From a virus: 62,162 nucleotides of DNA. The position numbers and the translations under genes were made by a program. The stretch's first letter is position 1; every line of letters starts with the position of its first letter. The notes beneath the pieces were generated by a model. It searched no databases. It saw only the letters and a program-made list of their open reading frames with translations, and was not told the DNA's origin. Positions 11,826 to 58,206 of the stretch are shown here, piece after piece. Where the stretch lies: positions 1-62,162 of the IMG/VR virus record IMGVR_UViG_3300031576_000512; one strand, 5' to 3'.

Positions 11826-11898
11826 CCCGCCGTAGCTCAATTGGAAGAGCAGGAGCTTCTAAAACTCTTGGTTCCGGGTTCGAGTCCCGGCGGCGGGT
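11826..11898 (+). tRNA. Putative amber-suppressor tRNA (anticodon CTA)
   Basis: Acceptor CCCGCCG/CGGCGGG, D arm GCTC-AATTGGAA-GAGC and T arm CCGGG-TTCGAGT-CCCGG are canonical. The anticodon arm is GGAGC-TTCTAAA-ACTCT, with a G-T pair, three Watson-Crick pairs and one C-A mismatch closing a seven-base loop. The loop register places C34-T35-A36 at 11859-11861, reading UAG. The Arg(TCT) register destroys the stem. The charging amino acid is unknown. It lies downstream of the amber-interrupted gene at 11361. Confidence 0.75.
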
Positions 11899-35230: not shown

Positions 35231-36724
35231 ATGGTCCTGGCCAAGGAGATGTCTGACTTCTTCGGCATGCTCAAGGAAGCGGACATCCTTCCCGAGATCA
35301 ATCTGCAACCACATCAGGCCCGCTTGACTGAGGAAGCGGAAGGTCCACCTACGCGCAAGCTGCTCTACCATTCGCTCGGTTCGGGTAAGACGCTCTCAGC
35401 GCTCGGCATGTCAGAAGCCCAGCAGCAGCCGTATACAGCAGTGGCACCGGCATCCCTCCGAGCCAATTGGAAGTCGGAGATGCAGAAGTTCACTGACGCG
35501 AAGACTCCACAGCATGTCATGAGCTACAGCGAGCTAGCTCTGGGCAAACCCGTGCCCCACGAACACTCTCTCATTTTCGACGAAGCTCATCGTCTACGGA
35601 ACATGGGGACCGCTCAGACGACTCAAGCTCTGCGAGCTTCCGAGCGTGCCAAGCAAGTCGTGCTGCTCTCCGGGTCGCCAGTTGTCAATGATCCTGCTGA
35701 TCTGGCTGTCCCGACCCGTATGCTTACCGGACAGAAGATCTCACCCAAGCAGTTCCGTCAGCGCTACGTCACTGAACGTGATGTGAGCCCGGGCTTCTTC
35801 GCCAGATTACGTGGCGTGCCGATGGGTCGAGAAGAAGACATCAATAACGCCAACGAGCTGAAAGCAATGCTCAAGGGACACGTTGATTACTACGCGCCGA
35901 CCAAAACCACGGTCCCAGTCAAGCACGAGAATCATGATGTCGAGATGGGTGTCGAGCAGAGTCAGCTTTATCGAGGTATGTGGGAGAAGCTGCCTTGGCA
36001 TATCCGCTGGAAGATGAAGAATGACTTCCCCATGAACTCCGAAGAGCTGCAGCGTTCGGTTAGCTTCCTCACTGGTCCTCGGCAGGTCAGCCTGTCGCCT
36101 TATCCGTACATGCGAGAAAAGGACCCGGTGCGTGCCTTCCACATGTCGCCGAAGTTGGTGAAGGCACATGCAGAGCTGACCAAGCACTTGCAACATCCTG
36201 AGAAGAAGGCCCTTATCTTCAGCAACTACATTGATGCTGGTCTCACGCCTTATTCAGCCAAGTTGACGGCGCAAGGAGTGCCTAACGCCCTCTTCCATGG
36301 TGGGTTGAATGATTCGCAGCGAAGACAGCTTGTCGATGACTTCAACAGCAACAAGATTCGAGTGGCCCTGATCGGACCGTCGGGGAGTGAAGGTCTGTCA
36401 TTCAAAGGCACACAGCTCATCCAGTTGCTCGATCCATATTGGAATCAGACTCGGGCCAACCAGCAACAAGGTCGTGGCCTTCGATTCGACAGTCATACTG
36501 GACTGCCAGATGACTTGAAGGATGTAACTGTGCAACAATTCACGTCCAAGTTGCCTTTGGGCTTCAAGGATCGATTGCTGTCGCGAATTGGTTTTGATCG
36601 TTCCAAGCATAGCCGTGGTGCTGACGCTTACTTGGCCGAGATGGCAGTTCGTAAGCAGCGGCTCAATCAGAAGTTCCTGGATCTCCTCAAGGAGGTCGGT
36701 TCACAGAGGGAGCAAGCAGCATGA
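35231..36724 (+). CDS. SNF2-type helicase/ATPase (497 aa)
   Basis: Walker A YHSLGSGKTLSALG (Lys53), DEAH box at residue 117, LLSGSPVVNDPADL (motif III), ALIFSNYIDAGLTPY (motif IV) and QQGRGLRFDSH (motif VI) cover both RecA-like halves. A DNA translocase or chromatin-remodelling-type ATPase. The window shows it between virion genes and upstream of the polymerase, so a role in genome ejection or early transcription is possible. Overlaps the next gene by four bases. Confidence 0.85.
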   Translation: MVLAKEMSDFFGMLKEADILPEINLQPHQARLTEEAEGPPTRKLLYHSLGSGKTLSALGMSEAQQQPYTAVAPASLRANWKSEMQKFTDAKTPQHVMSYSELALGKPVPHEHSLIFDEAHRLRNMGTAQTTQALRASERAKQVVLLSGSPVVNDPADLAVPTRMLTGQKISPKQFRQRYVTERDVSPGFFARLRGVPMGREEDINNANELKAMLKGHVDYYAPTKTTVPVKHENHDVEMGVEQSQLYRGMWEKLPWHIRWKMKNDFPMNSEELQRSVSFLTGPRQVSLSPYPYMREKDPVRAFHMSPKLVKAHAELTKHLQHPEKKALIFSNYIDAGLTPYSAKLTAQGVPNALFHGGLNDSQRRQLVDDFNSNKIRVALIGPSGSEGLSFKGTQLIQLLDPYWNQTRANQQQGRGLRFDSHTGLPDDLKDVTVQQFTSKLPLGFKDRLLSRIGFDRSKHSRGADAYLAEMAVRKQRLNQKFLDLLKEVGSQREQAA

Positions 36725-50035: not shown

Positions 50036-53000
50036 ATGCCCAGTATCATCACGGTGGGTCCGAATGTAAATGTGCCGGATGCTGCCGAGAACAAGACTGT
50101 CGCTCCAGCTACGACTCTCGGACCGGCCCCTGCTCAACGATCCATCGTGGCCGGCCCGAAGCCTGAACCAGTCACGATGCGCGCATTCGGTGATTCCAAT
50201 GCAACCAGGGAAGCCATCTACAGCAATGTGATGAAGGCAGCTCAGTCAATCCAACCCGTCTCCAACTCGCGCTACACGTTGTCTCTGCACAATCCTCAAT
50301 GGGCTGACAATCCAGAAGTCTCCATCATCGATCGCAAGAAAGCCATCTTGCGTGGCGAGACTCTGAATCGTCGCTTGCGTGGTCTCTGGCGGCTATCGGA
50401 CACCCAGGGCAACGTGCTTGGCGAGCGCACAGCAACTGTTGCTCACGTGCCTCGTATGACCAACCAGGGCACGTTTGTCGTCAACGGCTCAGAGTACACA
50501 CTCGGGCATCAGATGCGTCTGCGCCCTGGTGTTTTTACTCGTCGCAAGGAAAACGGCGAGCTAGAGAGCCACATCAATATCATGCCTGGTAAAGGTATGA
50601 GTCATCACTATTTCCTGGAGCCGGAGACTGGCGTCTTCAAGATCCGTGTCGGACAGTCTAACATGCCGCTCATCTCGGTCATGAAGGCAATGGGCGTCTC
50701 CGACAAAGAGATGTCTGCTGCCTGGGGCAGTGAACTGCATGGCATCAACATGCAGAAGGATGATCCACGTGCCATCGATAAGCTCTATGCTCGTCTCATC
50801 GGCAAGAAGGGTGATCCCCAGGCTTCAGCAGATCAGAAACGTGAGGCGGTCGCCAAGGCATTCAACGATATGGAGCTTGATCCAGAAGTCACCAAGCGAA
50901 CGCTGGGGCAGCCATTCCACAAATTGAGCAAAGAAGTCGCGCTGGCAACAACCAAGAAGCTCTTGGCTGTCAGTCGTGGTGAAGCAGATACGGACGATCG
51001 TGATGCGCTGGCCTTCCAGCATTTCATGGGTCCGGAGGACCTGTTCGCCGAGCGTATTGGTCGTGACAAGCGGGTCTTGAATGAACTGCTGTGGAAGGCA
51101 TCTACCCATGGCAATCTGGAGAAACTTCCGACGGGTGCCTTCACGCAGCATGTTCACGCTGCGCTATTAGATAGTGGCCTGGGTCAGTCTCTGGAAGAGA
51201 TCAATCCAGCTGACGTGTTCGATCAGCAGACTCGCGTGAGTCGGCTTGGTTATGGTGGCATCCCGTCCATCGATGCTGTTCCTGATGAGGCTCGCTCGGT
51301 CCAACCGAGTCATCTTGGCTACATCGACTTGCTACGCACACCGGAGTCATTCAAAGTCGGTGTCGATAGTCGTGTGAGCTTTGTGGCCAAGAAGGGCTCC
51401 GACGGTCGCATCTACACACCATTCACCGATGTCAAGACTGGGCAGATGGTCTATCGCAGCCCTCAAGACGTGGCCGACATGACTCTGGCCTTCCCGGGAG
51501 AGATGGAGAAGGGCAAGCCGTTGGTTGCGGCCATGGTTGGTAGCAAGACACGATACGTGCCACGCGATCAAGTCAACCTGATCATGCCTCATGCTGAGCA
51601 CTGGTTCAGCCCGATCAACAACATGGTGCCAATGAAATCCGCCGTGCAAGGCCAGCGAGCTTCCATGGCTTCTCGCTTCATCACCCAGGCACTGCCAGTC
51701 AAGGATGCGGAATCTCCGTTCGTCCGTGGTCAGGTGCCTGGCGCTGTGGGGCGTTCCTTCGAGGAACATTACGGACATCAGGTTGGTGCCGTCTTCGGCG
51801 AGAAGCAGGTTGGTCGTGTGGCGAAGGTTGGTCCTGATTCGATCTCTGTGAAGTATGCTGATGGTTCGACCAAGGAACATGAGCTCTACAACAACTTCCC
51901 TTACAACCGAAAGACCTACATCCACAACACACCTCTGGTGAAGGCTGGCGATCCTGTGCAACCTGGCCAACTTCTGGCTAAGTCGAACTACACCGACGAC
52001 AAGGGCCATGTCGCATTGGGTAAGAACCTGCGCGTGGCCTATGTTCCATTTCGTGGGCTAAACTACGAGGATGCCTACGTTATCTCACACTCGGCGGCTG
52101 AGAAGTTGTCATCCGAGCACATGTATCAACACAACCTGGAATGGGAAGAGAAGCACCGTAAGGGGCTCAACAGCTTCATCAGTATTTTCCCTGGTGCCTT
52201 CGAGAAGAAGCAACTCGTCGGCATGGACAGTGATGGTGTGATCAAACCAGGCACAGTCATCCGACCTGGCGATCCGGTTGTGCTGGCTGCTCGTGAACGC
52301 GAGTTGTCGCGCAAGCAAGTTCACGCTGCTCACAAGGGCAGCTTCGTCAATGATTCCATTACCTGGGATCATCATGCCGAGGGTGTCGTCACTGATGTTG
52401 AGAAGACAGAGAAGGGTGTTACTGTCGCGATCAAGAGTTTGAACAAGATGCAGGTCGGCGATAAGATGTCGGGTCGCTACGGTGACAAGGGCGTCGTGGC
52501 CGAAGTCATCTCCGATGATCAGATGCCACACGACGATCAAGGCCGACCGTTTGAAGTCCTGGCCAATCCGCTGGGTATTATCAGCCGGCGCAATCCGGCA
52601 CAGAAGGTTGAGGCTACTCTCGGTGCAATTGCTGAGAAGACTGGCAAGCATTACTCCGTTGACGACTTCTCGAACATCAACGACTTGAATGAGTACGCTA
52701 TCAGTGAACGGCAGAAGTATGGCGTCAACAACTACACCAGCATCAACGATCCAACAACCAACAAAAAGATCGATAACGTCTTTACTGGCAATCGCTTCTT
52801 CATGAAGCTGCACCACACGTCAGAGTCAAAGGGCCAGGGACGTGGCTTGGGTGGCTACACTGCCGAGGGCATGCCGGCCAAGGGTGGTGCTGAGGGCAGC
52901 AAGCGGATGGCCCTCATGGATGTCAACGCCATGCTATCACACGGCGCTCTGGAGACGCTTCGTGATGCCAAGCTGATCCGTGGGCAGAAGAATCAGGAAT

Positions 53001-54520
53001 ACTGGTCGAACTTCATGCAAGGCAATCGCCCACCAACGCCTCGCGTGCCAATCGTCTACGAGAAGTTCGTCAACCAGCTCAAGGCGTCTGGCATCAATGT
53101 GCAGCGCGAGGGAAGCCATACACACTTGATGGAGCTCACCAACAAGAACGTTGACGAGTTGGCCGGTGATCGTGAATTGCAGAATGTTGAGACTGTTGAT
53201 TGGAAGACTGGCTTGGCACCGATCAGGGGTGGTTTGTTTGATGAGAAGCTCACTGGCGGTCATAACGGCAACCGTTGGGCAAAGATCACCTTGCACGAGC
53301 CGATGCCCAACCCAGTGATGGAGGAACCGATCCGTCGTCTTCTCGGTCTTACCCAGGAAAAGTTCAATGGCGTCATTGCCGGTACTGAGGAACTAGGTGG
53401 TAAGACTGGCTCAGGTGCTATACAAGCTGCTCTTGCCTCAGTCAATCTGGACAAGTCAATCCAACAAGCACAGGCCGACATCGCCTCTGGCAAGAAGACG
53501 TTGCGCGACAACGCAGTGCGAAAACTACAGTACCTCAAGTCAGCCAAGATGAAGGGCATCCATCCCAAGGACTGGATGCTGGATTCTGTGCCAGTGCTAC
53601 CACCCATGTTCCGTCCCATCTCGGTCATGCAACAAACTGGTGGTCGTCTCATCACCGATGCTAACTATCTGTACAAGGAGCTGTTCGACGCCAATAACGC
53701 TTTGAAGAAGGTGTCTGGCATCTCCGAGGACATCGGTGACGAACGACTCAACTTGTACAACGCCTTCAAGGGTGTCACTGGTCTTGGCGATCCAGTGCAT
53801 CCGAAGAATCAGGACAAGAAGATCAAAGGCTTCTTGCAGCATGTCTTCGGCGGTAGCCCGAAGTTCGGTACTGTTCAGCAGAAGCTGATTGGCACCACGG
53901 TTGATTTGGTGGGTCGTGCCGTGGTTGTGCCGAACCCCGACTTGAACATGGATGAAGTGGGTCTCCCGGAAGCTCGCGCCTGGGAAATCTATACTCCATT
54001 CATCACTCGTCGTTTAGTCAAGAAAGGTGTGCCTCGGGTACAGGCGCTGGAATACATCAATAACAAGCACGATGTCGCCAAGAAGGCAATGCTTGAAGAG
54101 ATCAACGAACGGCCGGTCATCGTGACTCGTGCTCCGACCCTCCATCGCTATGGTCTCATGGCATTCTGGCCAAAGCTGACGAAGGGCGAGACACTGCAGA
54201 TCAGCCCGATTGTAGTTGGTGGTTTCGGTATGGACTTCGACGGCGATGCCTCAAACTACCACGTCCCCGCTTCCGATGAAGCTCGTGATGAGGTGGTGGA
54301 CAAGTTGATGCCAAGTAAAAATTTACTGAGCACTCAGAAGTTCCAGGCCCACTATCTCCCTCGACAGGAATACGTAGGAGGACTTTGGAATGCGACAAAT
54401 CGGGTAGACTCAAAGAAACAACCTCGCGTATTTGCAACCAAGCAGGATGCCTTGCGGGCTTTCCATAAGGGCGAGATCGACCCGGACCACCCGGTTCACA
54501 TCGTACATGCGGAGAGATGA
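50036..54520 (+). CDS. RNA polymerase beta / beta-prime N-terminal fusion (1494 aa)
   Basis: ATG 50036 follows GGAGG. Beta motifs: GLNYEDA (674-680), VGDKMSGRYGDKG with Lys810 and Lys818 (catalytic-site lysines), NPLGIISRRNPAQ, and a beta C-terminal clamp near 930-1030. The same chain continues into beta-prime: VLPPMFRPISVMQQTGGR, VDLVGRAVVVPN, RAPTLHR (1365-1371) and DFDGD with all three metal-binding Asp (1400, 1402, 1404), then YLPRQEYVGGLWN. The beta-prime N-terminal Cys4 zinc finger is absent. The chain ends about 90 residues past the metal site, and the rest is encoded at 56311. No alpha, omega or sigma gene is seen nearby. Confidence 0.93.
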   Translation: MPSIITVGPNVNVPDAAENKTVAPATTLGPAPAQRSIVAGPKPEPVTMRAFGDSNATREAIYSNVMKAAQSIQPVSNSRYTLSLHNPQWADNPEVSIIDRKKAILRGETLNRRLRGLWRLSDTQGNVLGERTATVAHVPRMTNQGTFVVNGSEYTLGHQMRLRPGVFTRRKENGELESHINIMPGKGMSHHYFLEPETGVFKIRVGQSNMPLISVMKAMGVSDKEMSAAWGSELHGINMQKDDPRAIDKLYARLIGKKGDPQASADQKREAVAKAFNDMELDPEVTKRTLGQPFHKLSKEVALATTKKLLAVSRGEADTDDRDALAFQHFMGPEDLFAERIGRDKRVLNELLWKASTHGNLEKLPTGAFTQHVHAALLDSGLGQSLEEINPADVFDQQTRVSRLGYGGIPSIDAVPDEARSVQPSHLGYIDLLRTPESFKVGVDSRVSFVAKKGSDGRIYTPFTDVKTGQMVYRSPQDVADMTLAFPGEMEKGKPLVAAMVGSKTRYVPRDQVNLIMPHAEHWFSPINNMVPMKSAVQGQRASMASRFITQALPVKDAESPFVRGQVPGAVGRSFEEHYGHQVGAVFGEKQVGRVAKVGPDSISVKYADGSTKEHELYNNFPYNRKTYIHNTPLVKAGDPVQPGQLLAKSNYTDDKGHVALGKNLRVAYVPFRGLNYEDAYVISHSAAEKLSSEHMYQHNLEWEEKHRKGLNSFISIFPGAFEKKQLVGMDSDGVIKPGTVIRPGDPVVLAARERELSRKQVHAAHKGSFVNDSITWDHHAEGVVTDVEKTEKGVTVAIKSLNKMQVGDKMSGRYGDKGVVAEVISDDQMPHDDQGRPFEVLANPLGIISRRNPAQKVEATLGAIAEKTGKHYSVDDFSNINDLNEYAISERQKYGVNNYTSINDPTTNKKIDNVFTGNRFFMKLHHTSESKGQGRGLGGYTAEGMPAKGGAEGSKRMALMDVNAMLSHGALETLRDAKLIRGQKNQEYWSNFMQGNRPPTPRVPIVYEKFVNQLKASGINVQREGSHTHLMELTNKNVDELAGDRELQNVETVDWKTGLAPIRGGLFDEKLTGGHNGNRWAKITLHEPMPNPVMEEPIRRLLGLTQEKFNGVIAGTEELGGKTGSGAIQAALASVNLDKSIQQAQADIASGKKTLRDNAVRKLQYLKSAKMKGIHPKDWMLDSVPVLPPMFRPISVMQQTGGRLITDANYLYKELFDANNALKKVSGISEDIGDERLNLYNAFKGVTGLGDPVHPKNQDKKIKGFLQHVFGGSPKFGTVQQKLIGTTVDLVGRAVVVPNPDLNMDEVGLPEARAWEIYTPFITRRLVKKGVPRVQALEYINNKHDVAKKAMLEEINERPVIVTRAPTLHRYGLMAFWPKLTKGETLQISPIVVGGFGMDFDGDASNYHVPASDEARDEVVDKLMPSKNLLSTQKFQAHYLPRQEYVGGLWNATNRVDSKKQPRVFATKQDALRAFHKGEIDPDHPVHIVHAER

Positions 54521-54521
54521 T

Positions 54522-55109
54522 ATGGGACTCAACCATCACCTGCTGGAACTGGCCAAAGCCCGCATCAAGCGTGGCTTCGTTGAGCAGACTCCGCCTTACA
54601 TGCCCGCCGGTCAACCACCGTCTCGTGGACCGATGGGGCCTGCTGGTGATGCTGCTCGTGCTGTTGGTAGGGCTGCTCAGAGTGTCGGCAGAGCAGTAAA
54701 GAGTCCAGCTACCACTGCTGGGCGTGGTGTGGATGCCCTGGGTCGAACGGCTCTTCGTCATCCGATTTTGAGTGCTGGAGTGCCGTTGGCAGGTTATGGT
54801 GCTTACAAGTTGCACGAAGGAATGAATCAGCCCGAGTCTGAGACCAAGCAGGCTGATATGCCAGCGACACCAATGTCACAACCGACAGGTGGCTTGCCAG
54901 TACCGGGTACTCCTCCTCCGACCAACGCAGCAGCAGTACCGCCAGCACAGACTACTAATTTCGGCAGCATCTCGTCACCACCTGTACAGCAGACCGATCA
55001 GGCGCAACCAATGGTCACAACGAGTCAAGGTGCTGCGAATATGCCAAAGCAACCAGTACAAGGAGCCCAGCAACGTGCTCCAGGGCTCGTAAAACCATCT
55101 GGCCAGTGA
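54522..55109 (+). CDS. Pro/Ala-rich virion-like protein between polymerase genes (195 aa)
   Basis: GGAGAG precedes ATG 54522. N-terminal amphipathic helix (HHLLELAKARIKRG), a basic Ala/Gly segment and a membrane-like stretch (LSAGVPLAGYGAYKL). ESETKQADMP (K-x-A motif) and a Pro/Gln-rich tail follow. Its location between the two polymerase genes suggests co-packaging, but no sequence link to RNA polymerase is seen. Confidence 0.65.
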   Translation: MGLNHHLLELAKARIKRGFVEQTPPYMPAGQPPSRGPMGPAGDAARAVGRAAQSVGRAVKSPATTAGRGVDALGRTALRHPILSAGVPLAGYGAYKLHEGMNQPESETKQADMPATPMSQPTGGLPVPGTPPPTNAAAVPPAQTTNFGSISSPPVQQTDQAQPMVTTSQGAANMPKQPVQGAQQRAPGLVKPSGQ

Positions 55110-55130
55110 TAGAATCAAGGTGACCCTTGA
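55107..55130 (+). promoter_or_regulatory. Extended -10 promoter and leader hairpin
   Basis: TGATAGAAT (55107-55115, overlapping the previous stop codon) then TCAAGG-TGAC-CCTTGA, upstream of the gene at 55147. Confidence 0.5.
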
Positions 55131-55146
55131 TAACGAGGAAGTAAAA

Positions 55147-55986
55147 ATGAACGGACTCAACTCCACGCTCTTGAACGCTGCTGTCAACAGTCTTCGGACC
55201 AATTATGGTTCGTCAAAGCTAGCCTTCGTCCCATCGGATGCCGCTGCTGGCGGTGGCGCCCCGCCTCCTGGGGGAGACCCCGCTGCTGGCGGTGGTGCCC
55301 CGCCTCCACCTCCTGGTGGCGATCCAATGGCTGGTGGCGGTGCCCCTCCTCCGCCTGATGCTGGTGGTGGCGCCATGCCTCCACCTCCGCCTGATCCCAG
55401 CATGATGGTCGGTGGTGCTGGTATGGCCGATCCGGCATCCATTGCCGGTCAGGTTGCCCAAGGTGTGCAGCAAGGTATGCAGGCGTCTGGTCTTCAAGGC
55501 AACAAGGGTGTCGGTCCCAATGGTAAGCCTGCCGTCAAGCCTGACATCAACACCATCGCTACTGACGTGTTTCAGTTGAAGAAGATGCTCTTTGCGATCA
55601 TGCGTCATGCCAACATCGAATTGCCTCCAGATGTGCTCGACGGCCCGAACCGTGATCCGCAAACCGGTGCGCCGGCTGAGAGCCCAACAGGCGGTTCTGA
55701 TGTGCAGCCCGGTGCCTCGATGATGGGGCAGAGCTCTATCAAACCAATCGAGGCAATGCAAGGTGCCTTTCCAATGGGCGGCGCCATGGGTGGCGGCGGC
55801 GCTCCTGGTGGCGCTCCAGGCGGTGGTGGAGCAATGGGTGGCATGGGCGCTGGCCGTATGAAGATTTCCAGCGATGTCTTCACCAAAACGGTTGGTAGGG
55901 AGATCCTTCCTGAAGTCACCGGTGAGCAGATCCTATCCAAGGCTGCTGCTGTCGCCATGATGTGTCGCCGTCGTCAAGCAGGATAA
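55147..55986 (+). CDS. Gly/Pro-rich virion-like protein (279 aa)
   Basis: ATG 55147. N-terminal helix (STLLNAAVNSLRTNYGSSKLA), then GGGAPPP repeats (about 33-105), a short folded segment (about 140-175), a second Gly-rich block and a C-terminal helix with CC-type residues (MMCRRRQAG). Probably structural. Confidence 0.65.
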   Translation: MNGLNSTLLNAAVNSLRTNYGSSKLAFVPSDAAAGGGAPPPGGDPAAGGGAPPPPPGGDPMAGGGAPPPPDAGGGAMPPPPPDPSMMVGGAGMADPASIAGQVAQGVQQGMQASGLQGNKGVGPNGKPAVKPDINTIATDVFQLKKMLFAIMRHANIELPPDVLDGPNRDPQTGAPAESPTGGSDVQPGASMMGQSSIKPIEAMQGAFPMGGAMGGGGAPGGAPGGGGAMGGMGAGRMKISSDVFTKTVGREILPEVTGEQILSKAAAVAMMCRRRQAG

Positions 55987-55989
55987 CCG

Positions 55990-56241
55990 ATGATCCTTCA
56001 ACTGCACGATAAGCTCCAGAAGCCGTTGGTCATACGGGCCACACGGCTTCTGGTCACTTTCGAGGATGGCACCCCGGTGGCTCTCATCCAGGAAGTCGTC
56101 CCGGGGCATGTCCGTGTCTTTCGAGCTGGCGATGGTGACTTCAACGAACGGCTTCGACAGACCGGGATCGAGCAGACCGTCATCGTCGACAAGCTCAAGC
56201 CTGCCAAACCAGTCGAGCAGCCAAGCCGCTTAATCTACTAA
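55990..56241 (+). CDS. Unknown small beta-rich protein (83 aa)
   Basis: Three bases after the previous stop. LLVTFEDGTPVALIQEV and VRVFRAGDGDF suggest a small beta-barrel or SH3-like fold. Sits just upstream of the beta-prime C-terminal gene. Function unknown. Confidence 0.6.
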   Translation: MILQLHDKLQKPLVIRATRLLVTFEDGTPVALIQEVVPGHVRVFRAGDGDFNERLRQTGIEQTVIVDKLKPAKPVEQPSRLIY

Positions 56242-56257
56242 TCAAGCAACGACACTG

Positions 56258-56263
56258 TAGAAT
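56258..56263 (+). promoter_or_regulatory. -10 element TAGAAT
   Basis: CTGTAGAAT lies about 50 bp before the beta-prime C-terminal gene, with no clear -35. It suggests independent transcription of this subunit. Confidence 0.4.
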
Positions 56264-56310
56264 GAGGATGGGTGCGAGAGGCATGCCCGTCTTCGATCTT
56301 TCTTTTAGGT

Positions 56311-58206
56311 ATGGAAGCCATGCTCCACACAACTGCCGGTCAACTTGCCATCAACGAACTTCTTCCGGATGAGCTGCGCGACCATAAGCGCATCCTCGAC
56401 AAGAAGGGCATTCAGCAGCTCCTCCAGACTGTTGCCGAGAAGCACCCGGACAAGTACCGTGACATTGCTCACGGCCTTTCTAAGATCGGCTACCAGTCGG
56501 CTTATTACACAGGCGGCCACAGTTTCGACCATGTGCATCTGCGGCCGTCAGTTGCAGGTTTGAAGATGCGCGAAGAGATCATGCGGAAGGTCGATCAGAT
56601 CTACGCTGATCCGAATTTGGATGACAAGGCCAAAGAACACAAAGTGGTGGAGGAGACGCTCAAGTACACCAAGCCGATGGAAGATGCAATCTTCAAGGAA
56701 AGCACAGCCGAGAATAATCCTTTAGCACACCAGGTCATCTCAGGTGCTCGTGGCAGTCCATCGAACCTCAAGTCGCTGCGTGGTTCAGATCTGCTCTATG
56801 TCGATCACAAGGAAAACCCAATTCCGGTCCCGATCCTGCGCAGTTACTCCGAAGGGCTTCGTCCGGTTGAATACTATGCCGGCACCTTTGGTGCTCGGAA
56901 GGGTGTCATGGACACCAAGTTTGCCACTCAGGATGCCGGTGCGCTATCGAAGCAATTCAATCAGGTTGCTCATCGCCTCATCGTCACTAAACACGATCAC
57001 GACGATCCCACCAAGCATGCTAATCAGGGCCTGCCGGTCAACCTTGATGATCCTGATAATGAAGGTGCTCTGCTGGCTTTTCCGATTGGCGGGTATCCTC
57101 GCAACACCATCCTGCGGCCGAAGATTATTTCGCATTTGAACAGCCTTGGCGTCAAACGGATTGTTGTCCGCAGTCCAATCACTACTGGCCCGATGGATGG
57201 TGGTCTGTACGGTCGTGATGTTGGCGTGCGTGAGCGTGGCGGCATCTCACCACAGGGAGACAACATTGGTATCGCAGCTGCTCAGGCTCTTTCCGAGCCT
57301 CTGGCTCAGGCTCAGCTTAGCTCGAAGCACTCTGGTGGTGTTGTCGGCGCAGCTAAGGGTGTCAGTGGCTTCAAGCTCATCAATCAGTTGACTCAGGTGC
57401 CCAAGACATTCAAAGGTGGGGCGGCTCATGCTCAGCTCGATGGCCGGGTAGGCGACATTGAGGATGCACCACAAGGCGGTCACTACATCGCAATTGGTGG
57501 CCAACGGCATTACGTTGGCACTGACTATGACCCTCTGGTTAAACGTGGTGATGAAGTTGAGGCTGGCGATGTGATCTCCGATGGCATCCCTAACCCAGCG
57601 GAGATTGTTCGACATAAAGGCATCGGCGAAGGCCGCCGGTACTTCGTGAACTCGTTCCGTCAAGCCTACAAGGATTCGGGCTTGCCACATCATCGTCGCA
57701 ACATTGAGATCATGGCACGTGGGCTTATCGATCACGTCAAATTGACTGAGGAACATGGTCAGTACGTCCCGGGCGATGTTGTTCCTTACAATCGTCTGGA
57801 GCACACATATCAGCCACGCGACGGACATCAAGTCATGGAACCCAAGCGTGCGGTAGGTATGTACTTGGAGAAGCCGGTACTGCATTATTCAATCGGCACC
57901 AGGATTCGGCCCAGCACATTGAACGATTTGAACGAGTTTGGTGTCAATAAAGTTGCCGTTCACAAAGACCCGCCTCCTTTCGAGCCAGAGATGATCCGTG
58001 GAATGGAGAACCTCAGTCACGACCCGGACTGGATGGTTAGATTCCTGGGCTCCTACCAGGAGAAGAATCTTTTGCGGGGCGTGCATCGTGGTGCGGTCAG
58101 TGATGAGAAGGGCACCAGTTATGTGCCGGCCCTGGCACATGCCGTTGACTTTGGCAAGGTTGGCCCAGTCAAGCCATGGAAGCCAAGCTCCATCTTCAAG
58201 ACTTGA
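56311..58206 (+). CDS. RNA polymerase beta-prime C-terminal subunit (631 aa)
   Basis: ATG 56311 opens with TTAGQLAINELLP, matching the beta-prime region right after the other chain's end. It continues with ISGARGSPSNLKSLRG (143-158), the bridge-helix segment GARKGVMDTKFATQDAG (from 194), and the trigger-loop segment LSSKHSGG with the catalytic His340 conserved. The Arg two to three residues before it in bacterial enzymes is Ser. The second beta-prime zinc site (four Cys in bacteria) is lost: SPITTGPMDGGLYGRDV has none. With the protein at 50036 it would rebuild a complete catalytic core. Confidence 0.92.
   Translation: MEAMLHTTAGQLAINELLPDELRDHKRILDKKGIQQLLQTVAEKHPDKYRDIAHGLSKIGYQSAYYTGGHSFDHVHLRPSVAGLKMREEIMRKVDQIYADPNLDDKAKEHKVVEETLKYTKPMEDAIFKESTAENNPLAHQVISGARGSPSNLKSLRGSDLLYVDHKENPIPVPILRSYSEGLRPVEYYAGTFGARKGVMDTKFATQDAGALSKQFNQVAHRLIVTKHDHDDPTKHANQGLPVNLDDPDNEGALLAFPIGGYPRNTILRPKIISHLNSLGVKRIVVRSPITTGPMDGGLYGRDVGVRERGGISPQGDNIGIAAAQALSEPLAQAQLSSKHSGGVVGAAKGVSGFKLINQLTQVPKTFKGGAAHAQLDGRVGDIEDAPQGGHYIAIGGQRHYVGTDYDPLVKRGDEVEAGDVISDGIPNPAEIVRHKGIGEGRRYFVNSFRQAYKDSGLPHHRRNIEIMARGLIDHVKLTEEHGQYVPGDVVPYNRLEHTYQPRDGHQVMEPKRAVGMYLEKPVLHYSIGTRIRPSTLNDLNEFGVNKVAVHKDPPPFEPEMIRGMENLSHDPDWMVRFLGSYQEKNLLRGVHRGAVSDEKGTSYVPALAHAVDFGKVGPVKPWKPSSIFKT

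What the first reader, a model, noticed from the sequence alone, without database searches (positions are those of the whole stretch)
50036..58206. RNA polymerase with a beta/beta-prime-N fusion and a separate beta-prime C-terminal chain
One 1494-residue frame reads from beta clamp and catalytic-lysine motifs straight into the beta-prime double-psi barrel with an intact DFDGD site. The bridge helix and trigger loop are in another gene. Beta/beta-prime fusions are known in some bacteria, and splits of beta-prime at about this position in cyanobacteria and plastids. phiKZ-type phages have split subunits. Having a fusion and a split at once, with both beta-prime zinc sites lost, the trigger-loop His kept and the neighbouring Arg changed to Ser, is an arrangement I do not recognise.
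Basis: partly seen in the sequence, partly recalled or inferred. Interest (0 to 1): 0.92.

Follow-up and report, generated by a model that had tools for sequence, protein, structure and literature searches.

The report
Two-chain rearranged phage RNA polymerase
This phage fragment encodes an RNA-copying enzyme of the bacterial kind whose parts have been re-cut, with one large subunit fused to the front of the other and the back made separately; the same arrangement occurs in a whole family of large phages, and one cultured member (Salmonella phage Arash) carries this enzyme inside its virus particles.

Summary
Window 50036-54520 is one uninterrupted 1494-residue frame that runs from beta into the N-terminal part of beta-prime (beta'N). 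The C-terminal part (beta'C, bridge helix and trigger loop) is a separate gene at 56272-58206. It is neither a frameshift nor an assembly join: every complete relative examined has the same fusion and split, including seven metagenomic relatives, cultured Salmonella phage Arash, Vibrio phage D69 and their kin. They form one clade (100/100), selection is strong across the junction (dN/dS about 0.06), and the split falls at RpoC residues 551-570 throughout. No alpha subunit was found. The arrangement is not unprecedented: it sits in GenBank under Arash (2023), labelled 'beta' and 'beta prime'. Published virion mass spectrometry found the Arash fusion to be the most-detected protein, with beta'C, a sigma factor and an SNF2-type helicase also present. 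I found no paper that points out the fusion-plus-split. Best reading: an alpha-less, two-chain virion RNA polymerase for early phage transcription. Packaging in this particular phage is inferred.

The parts
50036..54520 (+). beta + beta'N fusion, 1494 aa; GenBank homologue Arash gp206
   Evidence: One open frame; Pfam/PHROG matches; same fusion in all complete relatives
52463..52489 (+). beta catalytic-lysine motif, K810 and K818 (GDKMSGRYGDKG)
   Evidence: Invariant lysines in the alignments
53123..53231 (+). beta/beta' junction, about residues 1030-1065
   Evidence: Beta matches end near residue 1023-1039 and beta' homology resumes by GGLFD at residue 1065; dN/dS 0.05-0.06 across it
54233..54247 (+). 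beta' catalytic site DFDGD (residues 1400-1404)
   Evidence: Rpb1 domain 2 match; the three Asp invariant
54522..55109 (+). intervening gene 1, unknown, conserved in the L003 record
   Evidence: phmmer to G001; no Pfam or PHROG match
55120..55986 (+). intervening gene 2 (Gly/Pro-rich), conserved in the same place in G001 and G005
55990..56241 (+). intervening gene 3, small, conserved in G001
56272..58206 (+). beta'C chain (bridge helix, trigger loop, jaw, C-terminal clamp), up to 644 aa; start probably ATG 56311
   Evidence: Rpb1 domain 5; profile match to bacterial beta'; Foldseek E 3e-22 to bacterial beta'
56851..56943 (+). bridge helix region
   Evidence: alignment to RpoC 770-806
57256..57351 (+). 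trigger loop: R933 is S350, H936 is H353
   Evidence: alignment to RpoC 918-945
35231..36724 (+). SNF2-type helicase, homologue of the virion helicase Arash Gp217 (next to beta'C in Arash)
   Evidence: phmmer E 4e-58; Pfam SNF2-rel_dom/Helicase_C; Gp217 in Arash virions

Best explanation
The two genes encode the complete catalytic core of a bacterial-type, two-barrel RNA polymerase, made as two chains instead of beta, beta' and alpha2. The long chain is beta covalently joined to beta'N, so that both double-psi barrels (the two lysines and DFDGD) lie in one polypeptide. [quoted passage not shown] With no alpha, the covalent beta-beta'N link plausibly takes over the assembly role that the alpha dimer has in cells. 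By homology to phage Arash the enzyme is most likely packaged in the virion, together with a sigma-like protein and an SNF2-type helicase, injected with the DNA, and used for early phage transcription. Shown: the anatomy, its conservation, the motifs, the lack of detectable alpha, one polymerase set per record, and (published for Arash) both chains in the virion. Inferred: packaging in this phage, the two-chain assembly, and the early-transcription role.
For: Anatomy and motifs. Architecture conserved in every complete relative; clade 100/100; purifying selection across the junction and in beta'C. Profile matches to bacterial beta, beta' and cyanobacterial gamma; low-confidence models still match bacterial beta and beta'. 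One Rpb2 gene per fused record; no alpha. Virion: Arash Gp206 (the fusion) 100% coverage, 128 unique peptides, 3516 spectra, the most of any protein; Gp216 (beta'C) 40 peptides, 1210 spectra; sigma Gp10 24 peptides, 467 spectra; helicase Gp217 38 peptides, 1148 spectra (PMC10585845 Table 2). The window has the Gp217 homologue; its relatives G001 and G005 have Gp10 sigma and major-capsid homologues, and G005 a terminase homologue. Dedicated promoter class in the Arash branch: GGTATAAGNAANNTGTAA, 22:0 by strand in Arash, 14:0 in D69 and D181, about 20 in most others, reversed-pattern control near zero; GGTATAAG seen 31 times against a shuffle mean of 2.7.
Against: Virion packaging rests on a relative at about 31% identity; the Arash authors themselves allow carry-over of abundant proteins. 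The promoter motif is absent from the window branch, so promoter recognition differs there. AlphaFold confidence is low (pLDDT 58 and 63) and no complex could be modelled. No sigma was found in the window itself, which is only a 62 kb fragment. The missing trigger-loop Arg and zinc sites could mean altered or weak activity.
Confidence: 0.72

Rival explanations
1. It is a non-virion polymerase made during infection for middle or late genes; the Arash peptides are carry-over from abundant enzyme in the lysate.
For: The Arash authors raise this possibility, and other enzymes such as primase and ribonucleotide reductase also appear in their list. Only one polymerase set is present per record, so it might serve any stage.
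Against: The fusion is the single most-detected protein, above the major capsid protein, with 128 unique peptides, whereas primase has 2 unique peptides. The helicase next to beta'C and only one of the two Arash sigma factors are found in virions.
Confidence: 0.2
2. Assembly artefact or frameshift: beta and beta' are separate genes that were joined, and beta' was broken by a misassembly or by inserted genes.
For: Single metagenomic contig; mobile elements do interrupt these genes in relatives.
Against: Same fusion and same split point in more than a dozen independent records, including cultured isolates; dN/dS about 0.06 across the junction; 100% peptide coverage of Arash Gp206.
Confidence: 0.01
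3. The split is not real at the protein or RNA level: the two beta' parts are rejoined by trans-splicing, a split intein or an intron.
For: Inteins occur in this gene pair in relatives, and a group I intron interrupts the D181 gene.
Against: No intein residues are recognisable at the ends of either chain; the intervening stretch holds ordinary genes, some on the opposite strand in Arash; the two Arash chains were counted as separate proteins at different levels.
Confidence: 0.04
4. A decaying or repurposed polymerase, for example a structural protein, without catalytic activity.
For: Both zinc sites lost and the trigger-loop Arg replaced; L005 carries an in-frame TGA in the lysine motif and a beta'C fused to a 660-residue low-complexity tail.
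Against: DFDGD, both lysines, bridge helix and trigger-loop His are kept; strong purifying selection.
Confidence: 0.05

Closest known systems
RNA polymerase of Salmonella phage Arash (gp206/gp216, OQ632216; PMC10585845) and Vibrio phages D69, D181, D148
   Same: Same beta-beta'N fusion, same separate beta'C, split at the same RpoC position, zinc site 1 absent, His936 kept with R933 replaced, no alpha; monophyletic with the window
   Different: About 31% identical; zinc site 2 intact; a second sigma with region 2 and a shared GGTATAAG promoter class, not seen in the window branch. Its authors annotated the chains simply as beta and beta'
[quoted passage not shown]
   Same: No alpha; beta' split after the DFDGD barrel, as in cyanobacteria (PMC7598289); an SNF2-type helicase accompanies them (PMC7824862)
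   Different: There beta is split too, nothing is fused between beta and beta', there are two sets per genome and no recognisable sigma
mReC phages (Weinheimer and Aylward 2020, PMC7481178)
   Same: Phage-encoded polymerase still alignable to bacterial beta and beta'
   Different: Described as beta and beta' subunits with a gp23-type capsid protein; gp23 was not found in any fused record
Single-chain phage two-barrel polymerases (crAss-like phi14:2 gp66, Thermus P23-45 gp64/gp96; PMC10770324)
   Same: Both barrels in one polypeptide; virion-packaged examples exist
   Different: There bridge helix and trigger loop are in the same chain and similarity to bacterial subunits is minimal; here beta'C is separate and the similarity is high
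Cyanobacterial/plastid split beta' (gamma + beta') and bacterial rpoB-rpoC fusions (e.g. Helicobacter, Wolbachia; from general knowledge)
   Same: Each shows one of the two rearrangements; the profiles match the cyanobacterial gamma chain and beta' chain separately
   Different: Neither has both at once; they keep alpha

Membership tests
Bacterial-type multisubunit RNA polymerase core | DxDxD in the beta' barrel and two lysines in the beta barrel | tested here: met
   D1400/1402/1404, K810, K818 invariant
Bacterial-type multisubunit RNA polymerase core | Bridge helix and trigger loop with R933 and H936 | tested here: not met
   Both elements present and His kept, but R933 is Ser
Bacterial-type multisubunit RNA polymerase core | Zinc sites 1 and 2 of beta' | tested here: not met
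   Site 1 deleted, site 2 Cys replaced
Bacterial-type multisubunit RNA polymerase core | Alpha subunit | tested here: not met
   PF01000 in 0 of 21 records, positive in 13 of 14 control genomes
Arash-type fused/split phage polymerase | Beta-beta'N fusion plus separate beta'C, split at RpoC 551-570 | tested here: met
Arash-type fused/split phage polymerase | Monophyly of the polymerase | tested here: met
   16 rows, 100/100
Arash-type fused/split phage polymerase | Accompanying SNF2 helicase, virion sigma and major capsid protein | tested here: inconclusive
   Helicase in the window; sigma and capsid homologues in the 83%-identical relative G001 but beyond the region the window covers
Arash-type fused/split phage polymerase | Presence in the virion | not testable with these tools
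   Shown for Arash only (PMC10585845)
phiKZ/AR9-type polymerase | Split beta and split beta', no fusion | tested here: not met
   Beta unsplit and fused
phiKZ/AR9-type polymerase | Two sets (virion and non-virion) per genome | tested here: not met
   One Rpb2 gene per fused record
mReC phages | gp23-type major capsid protein (PF07068) | tested here: not met
   0 of 18 fused records (several are fragments); found in Rhizobium Y65 and Yersinia GN1
mReC phages | RNA polymerase clusters with the mReC sequences | not tested
   The mReC sequences were not identified in the collections
Single-chain two-barrel phage polymerase | Both barrels, bridge helix and trigger loop in one chain | tested here: not met
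   Bridge helix and trigger loop in the second gene

The most novel reading that the evidence does not exclude
A third architectural class of viral multisubunit RNA polymerase: an alpha-less, two-chain (beta-beta'N plus beta'C) bacterial-type core, packaged in the virion with its own sigma and an SNF2 helicase as a ready-made holoenzyme that reads a dedicated class of early promoters, in which the covalent fusion replaces alpha as the assembly platform.
Probability: 0.5. Interest if true: 0.78.

Novelty: new variant of a known kind. Interest (0 to 1): 0.62.

Why it matters
Cellular RNA polymerases assemble on an alpha dimer, and how phage enzymes hold together without it is an open question (stated in PMC7598289). 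A two-chain core in which beta is covalently tied to beta'N gives a direct, testable answer and may be the simplest bacterial-like enzyme with a separable trigger-loop chain. Because cultured, easily grown phages (Arash, D69) carry it, and one packages it with a sigma factor, the system is open to biochemistry now. It also shows that the stretch after the DFDGD barrel is cut in cyanobacteria, phiKZ-type phages and this family alike.

Tried and rejected
Frameshift or assembly join: rejected. mReC membership: gp23 capsid not found, tree placement untested. Several 'phage' records with unsplit beta and beta' (CAKLQH, AFYI, OR844998) proved to be bacterial DNA, seen from the rplK-rplL-rpoB-rpoC neighbourhood or intact zinc sites, and were used only as bacterial references. 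AlphaFold models of a 1200-residue part of the fusion (pLDDT 57.7, pTM 0.36) and of beta'C (63.4, 0.57) are too weak for structural claims. Sigma region 2 and region 4 searches found nothing over the cut-off in the window branch; the sigma homologue came only from a direct search with Arash Gp10. A scan of bacterial and archaeal genomes found no relative, so the host stays unknown. The Arash promoter motif is absent from the window branch, and sigma-70-like sites near the window genes are no more frequent than in shuffles. Spectral counts per residue for Gp206, Gp216, Gp217 and Gp10 are all about 2, which would suit an equimolar complex, but many other virion proteins give similar values, so I do not use this.
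Full report
WHAT IS THERE. The frame at 50036-54520 is open throughout and gives 1494 residues. In order it shows beta domains and the beta lysine motif GDKMSGRYGDKGV, then beta' from GGLFD through the double-psi barrel with DFDGD, and it stops about 90 residues after DFDGD. Pfam and PHROG matches place beta (Rpb2_6, residues 616-942) and beta' (Rpb1_2, 1355-1421) in one chain. Three small genes follow, then 56272-58206, which is the rest of beta' (Rpb1_5) with bridge helix and trigger loop. Profiles of the two families match bacterial beta, beta' and the cyanobacterial gamma and beta' chains.

IS IT CHANCE OR ARTEFACT? No. Using the window proteins and homologues from cultured phages as queries, I found the same fusion and the same separate beta'C in two branches. 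The window branch includes L003 (83% identical), L010, L022, L023, L024, L025 and L026, plus L005 with the elements described below. The Arash branch includes Salmonella phage Arash, Vibrio phage D69 and L011, L013, L014, L016, L017, L019 and L020. The split lies at RpoC 551-570 in all 16 aligned rows. Synonymous changes outnumber amino-acid changes across the junction (dN/dS 0.05-0.07 in all stretches that could be computed) and in beta'C (0.09). A tree of beta' puts all 16 fused rows together at 100/100, apart from four phages with unsplit beta', one phage (EP_H11) with an independently split beta', and bacteria. The two longest branches in that tree meet, so relations outside the fused clade should not be trusted.

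CHEMISTRY. The three aspartates, both beta lysines and the trigger-loop His are invariant; R933 is Ser in the window branch and Gly or Ser in the Arash branch. Zinc site 1 is missing in all fused rows but present in the other phage polymerases examined. Zinc site 2 is kept in the Arash branch and lost in the window branch. No record has a recognisable alpha, while 13 of 14 control genomes do. Each fused record has a single Rpb2 gene, so there is no phiKZ-like pair of polymerases.

SURROUNDINGS AND ROLE. The Arash paper (PMC10585845) reports virion mass spectrometry: Gp206, here recognised as the beta-beta'N fusion, is the most detected protein (3516 spectra, 128 unique peptides, 100% coverage). 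Gp216 (beta'C), Gp217 (helicase encoded next to beta'C) and Gp10 (sigma factor) are also present; the second sigma, Gp196, is not listed. The window encodes a Gp217 homologue at 35231-36724 (phmmer 4e-58). The near relative G001 and the 181 kb relative G005 encode homologues of the virion sigma Gp10 (8e-12 and 9e-15, with sigma region 3 or 4 matches) and of the Arash major capsid protein; G005 also has a terminase homologue. The sigma gene of G001 lies at 87.5 kb, beyond the part that the window covers. The parsimonious reading is one phage family whose virions carry a two-chain polymerase, a sigma and a helicase. For the window's phage this remains an inference.

A PREDICTED PROMOTER CLASS IN THE SISTER BRANCH. 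Upstream of leftward (DNA metabolism and small) genes of Arash I found GGTATAAGTAANNTGTAA. The core GGTATAAG occurs 31 times, 30 on one strand, against a mean of 2.7 in shuffles, usually ending 20-40 bases before a start codon. The long form, with up to two mismatches, is found 22:0 by strand in Arash, 14:0 in Vibrio D69 and D181, and about 20 times, nearly all on one strand, in five of six relatives (6 in the other), with almost none for the reversed control. It lacks a clear -35 element and has G where sigma-70 promoters have the nearly invariant final T of TATAAT, so the phage enzyme is the likelier reader; this is inference. It is absent from the window branch, where a different palindromic element, AGTA(N6)TACT, precedes some start codons in the window and G001 only.

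MOBILE ELEMENTS IN THE POLYMERASE GENES. Window-branch relatives carry in-frame inteins at several places: after window residues 384 (L003), 410 and 437 (L010), 410 (L022), 626 (L025), about 437 (L026), 811 and 851 (L005, flanking the lysine motif) and 225 of beta'C (L005). In Vibrio D181 and D148 the beta part is interrupted by a group I intron (Rfam RF00028, 100.7 bits, scanned in D181) with an I-HmuI-like endonuclease, exactly where D69 is uninterrupted. The window itself has none. An intron-mobility origin of split phage polymerase genes has been proposed (cited in PMC7598289); this family would be a good place to test that.

WHAT IS KNOWN AND WHAT IS NEW. The proteins are in public records and the Arash chains are in a published proteome, but the records call them beta and beta' or hypothetical, and no paper I could search describes the fusion plus split (only open-access papers are searchable). 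It is therefore a new variant of a known kind (phage two-barrel RNA polymerases), not a new kind of enzyme.

Noticed in passing
L003, L005, L010, L022, L025, L026 polymerase genes: Nine intein-like insertions at several different sites in the fused polymerase and beta'C of window-branch relatives, two of them flanking the catalytic-lysine motif; LAGLIDADG or intein-splicing domains recognised in several.
   Followed up: partly
L008 7604-8515 (Vibrio phage D181; D148 alike): A group I intron (RF00028, 100.7 bits) with an I-HmuI-like endonuclease interrupts the polymerase gene, so the deposited annotation shows it as two hypothetical proteins.
   Followed up: yes
L039-L042, L006 (Arash) and relatives: GGTATAAGTAANNTGTAA, a strand-specific promoter-like motif about 20-40 bases before many leftward genes, conserved across Arash-type phages.
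   Followed up: partly
window 1047, 16867, 26415, 46759 and L053-L056: Palindromic element AGTA(N6)TACT just ahead of the ribosome-binding site of several genes, in the window and its nearest relative only; function unknown.
   Followed up: partly
window 11826-11898; L053 4855-4928: A tRNA with anticodon CUA (ARAGORN calls it tRNA-Pyl) in the window and in its 83%-identical relative; TAG still ends the ligase gene where the homologue ends in TGA, so it may be a suppressor rather than a sign of a changed code.
   Followed up: partly
L005 5819-5821 and L004 814-816: Extra bases with an in-frame TGA inside the conserved GRYGDKG motif of beta in two related contigs; whether this is a sequencing artefact, a dead copy or something else is open.
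   Followed up: no
L005 14057-16033: beta'C carries an extra C-terminal stretch of about 660 residues, rich in Pro/Ala and without clear relatives, reminiscent of a virion protein.
   Followed up: partly
phages collection records CAKLQH020000005, AFYI01000006, AGRM01000005, OR844998: Held as phage records but the polymerase region looks like ordinary bacterial DNA (AGRM seen only through its match, not opened).
   Followed up: partly
L060 3926-8588 (Escherichia phage EP_H11): Another phage with beta' split in the same region, with the C-terminal part encoded before the N-terminal part and no fusion to beta at that locus; an apparently independent split.
   Followed up: no
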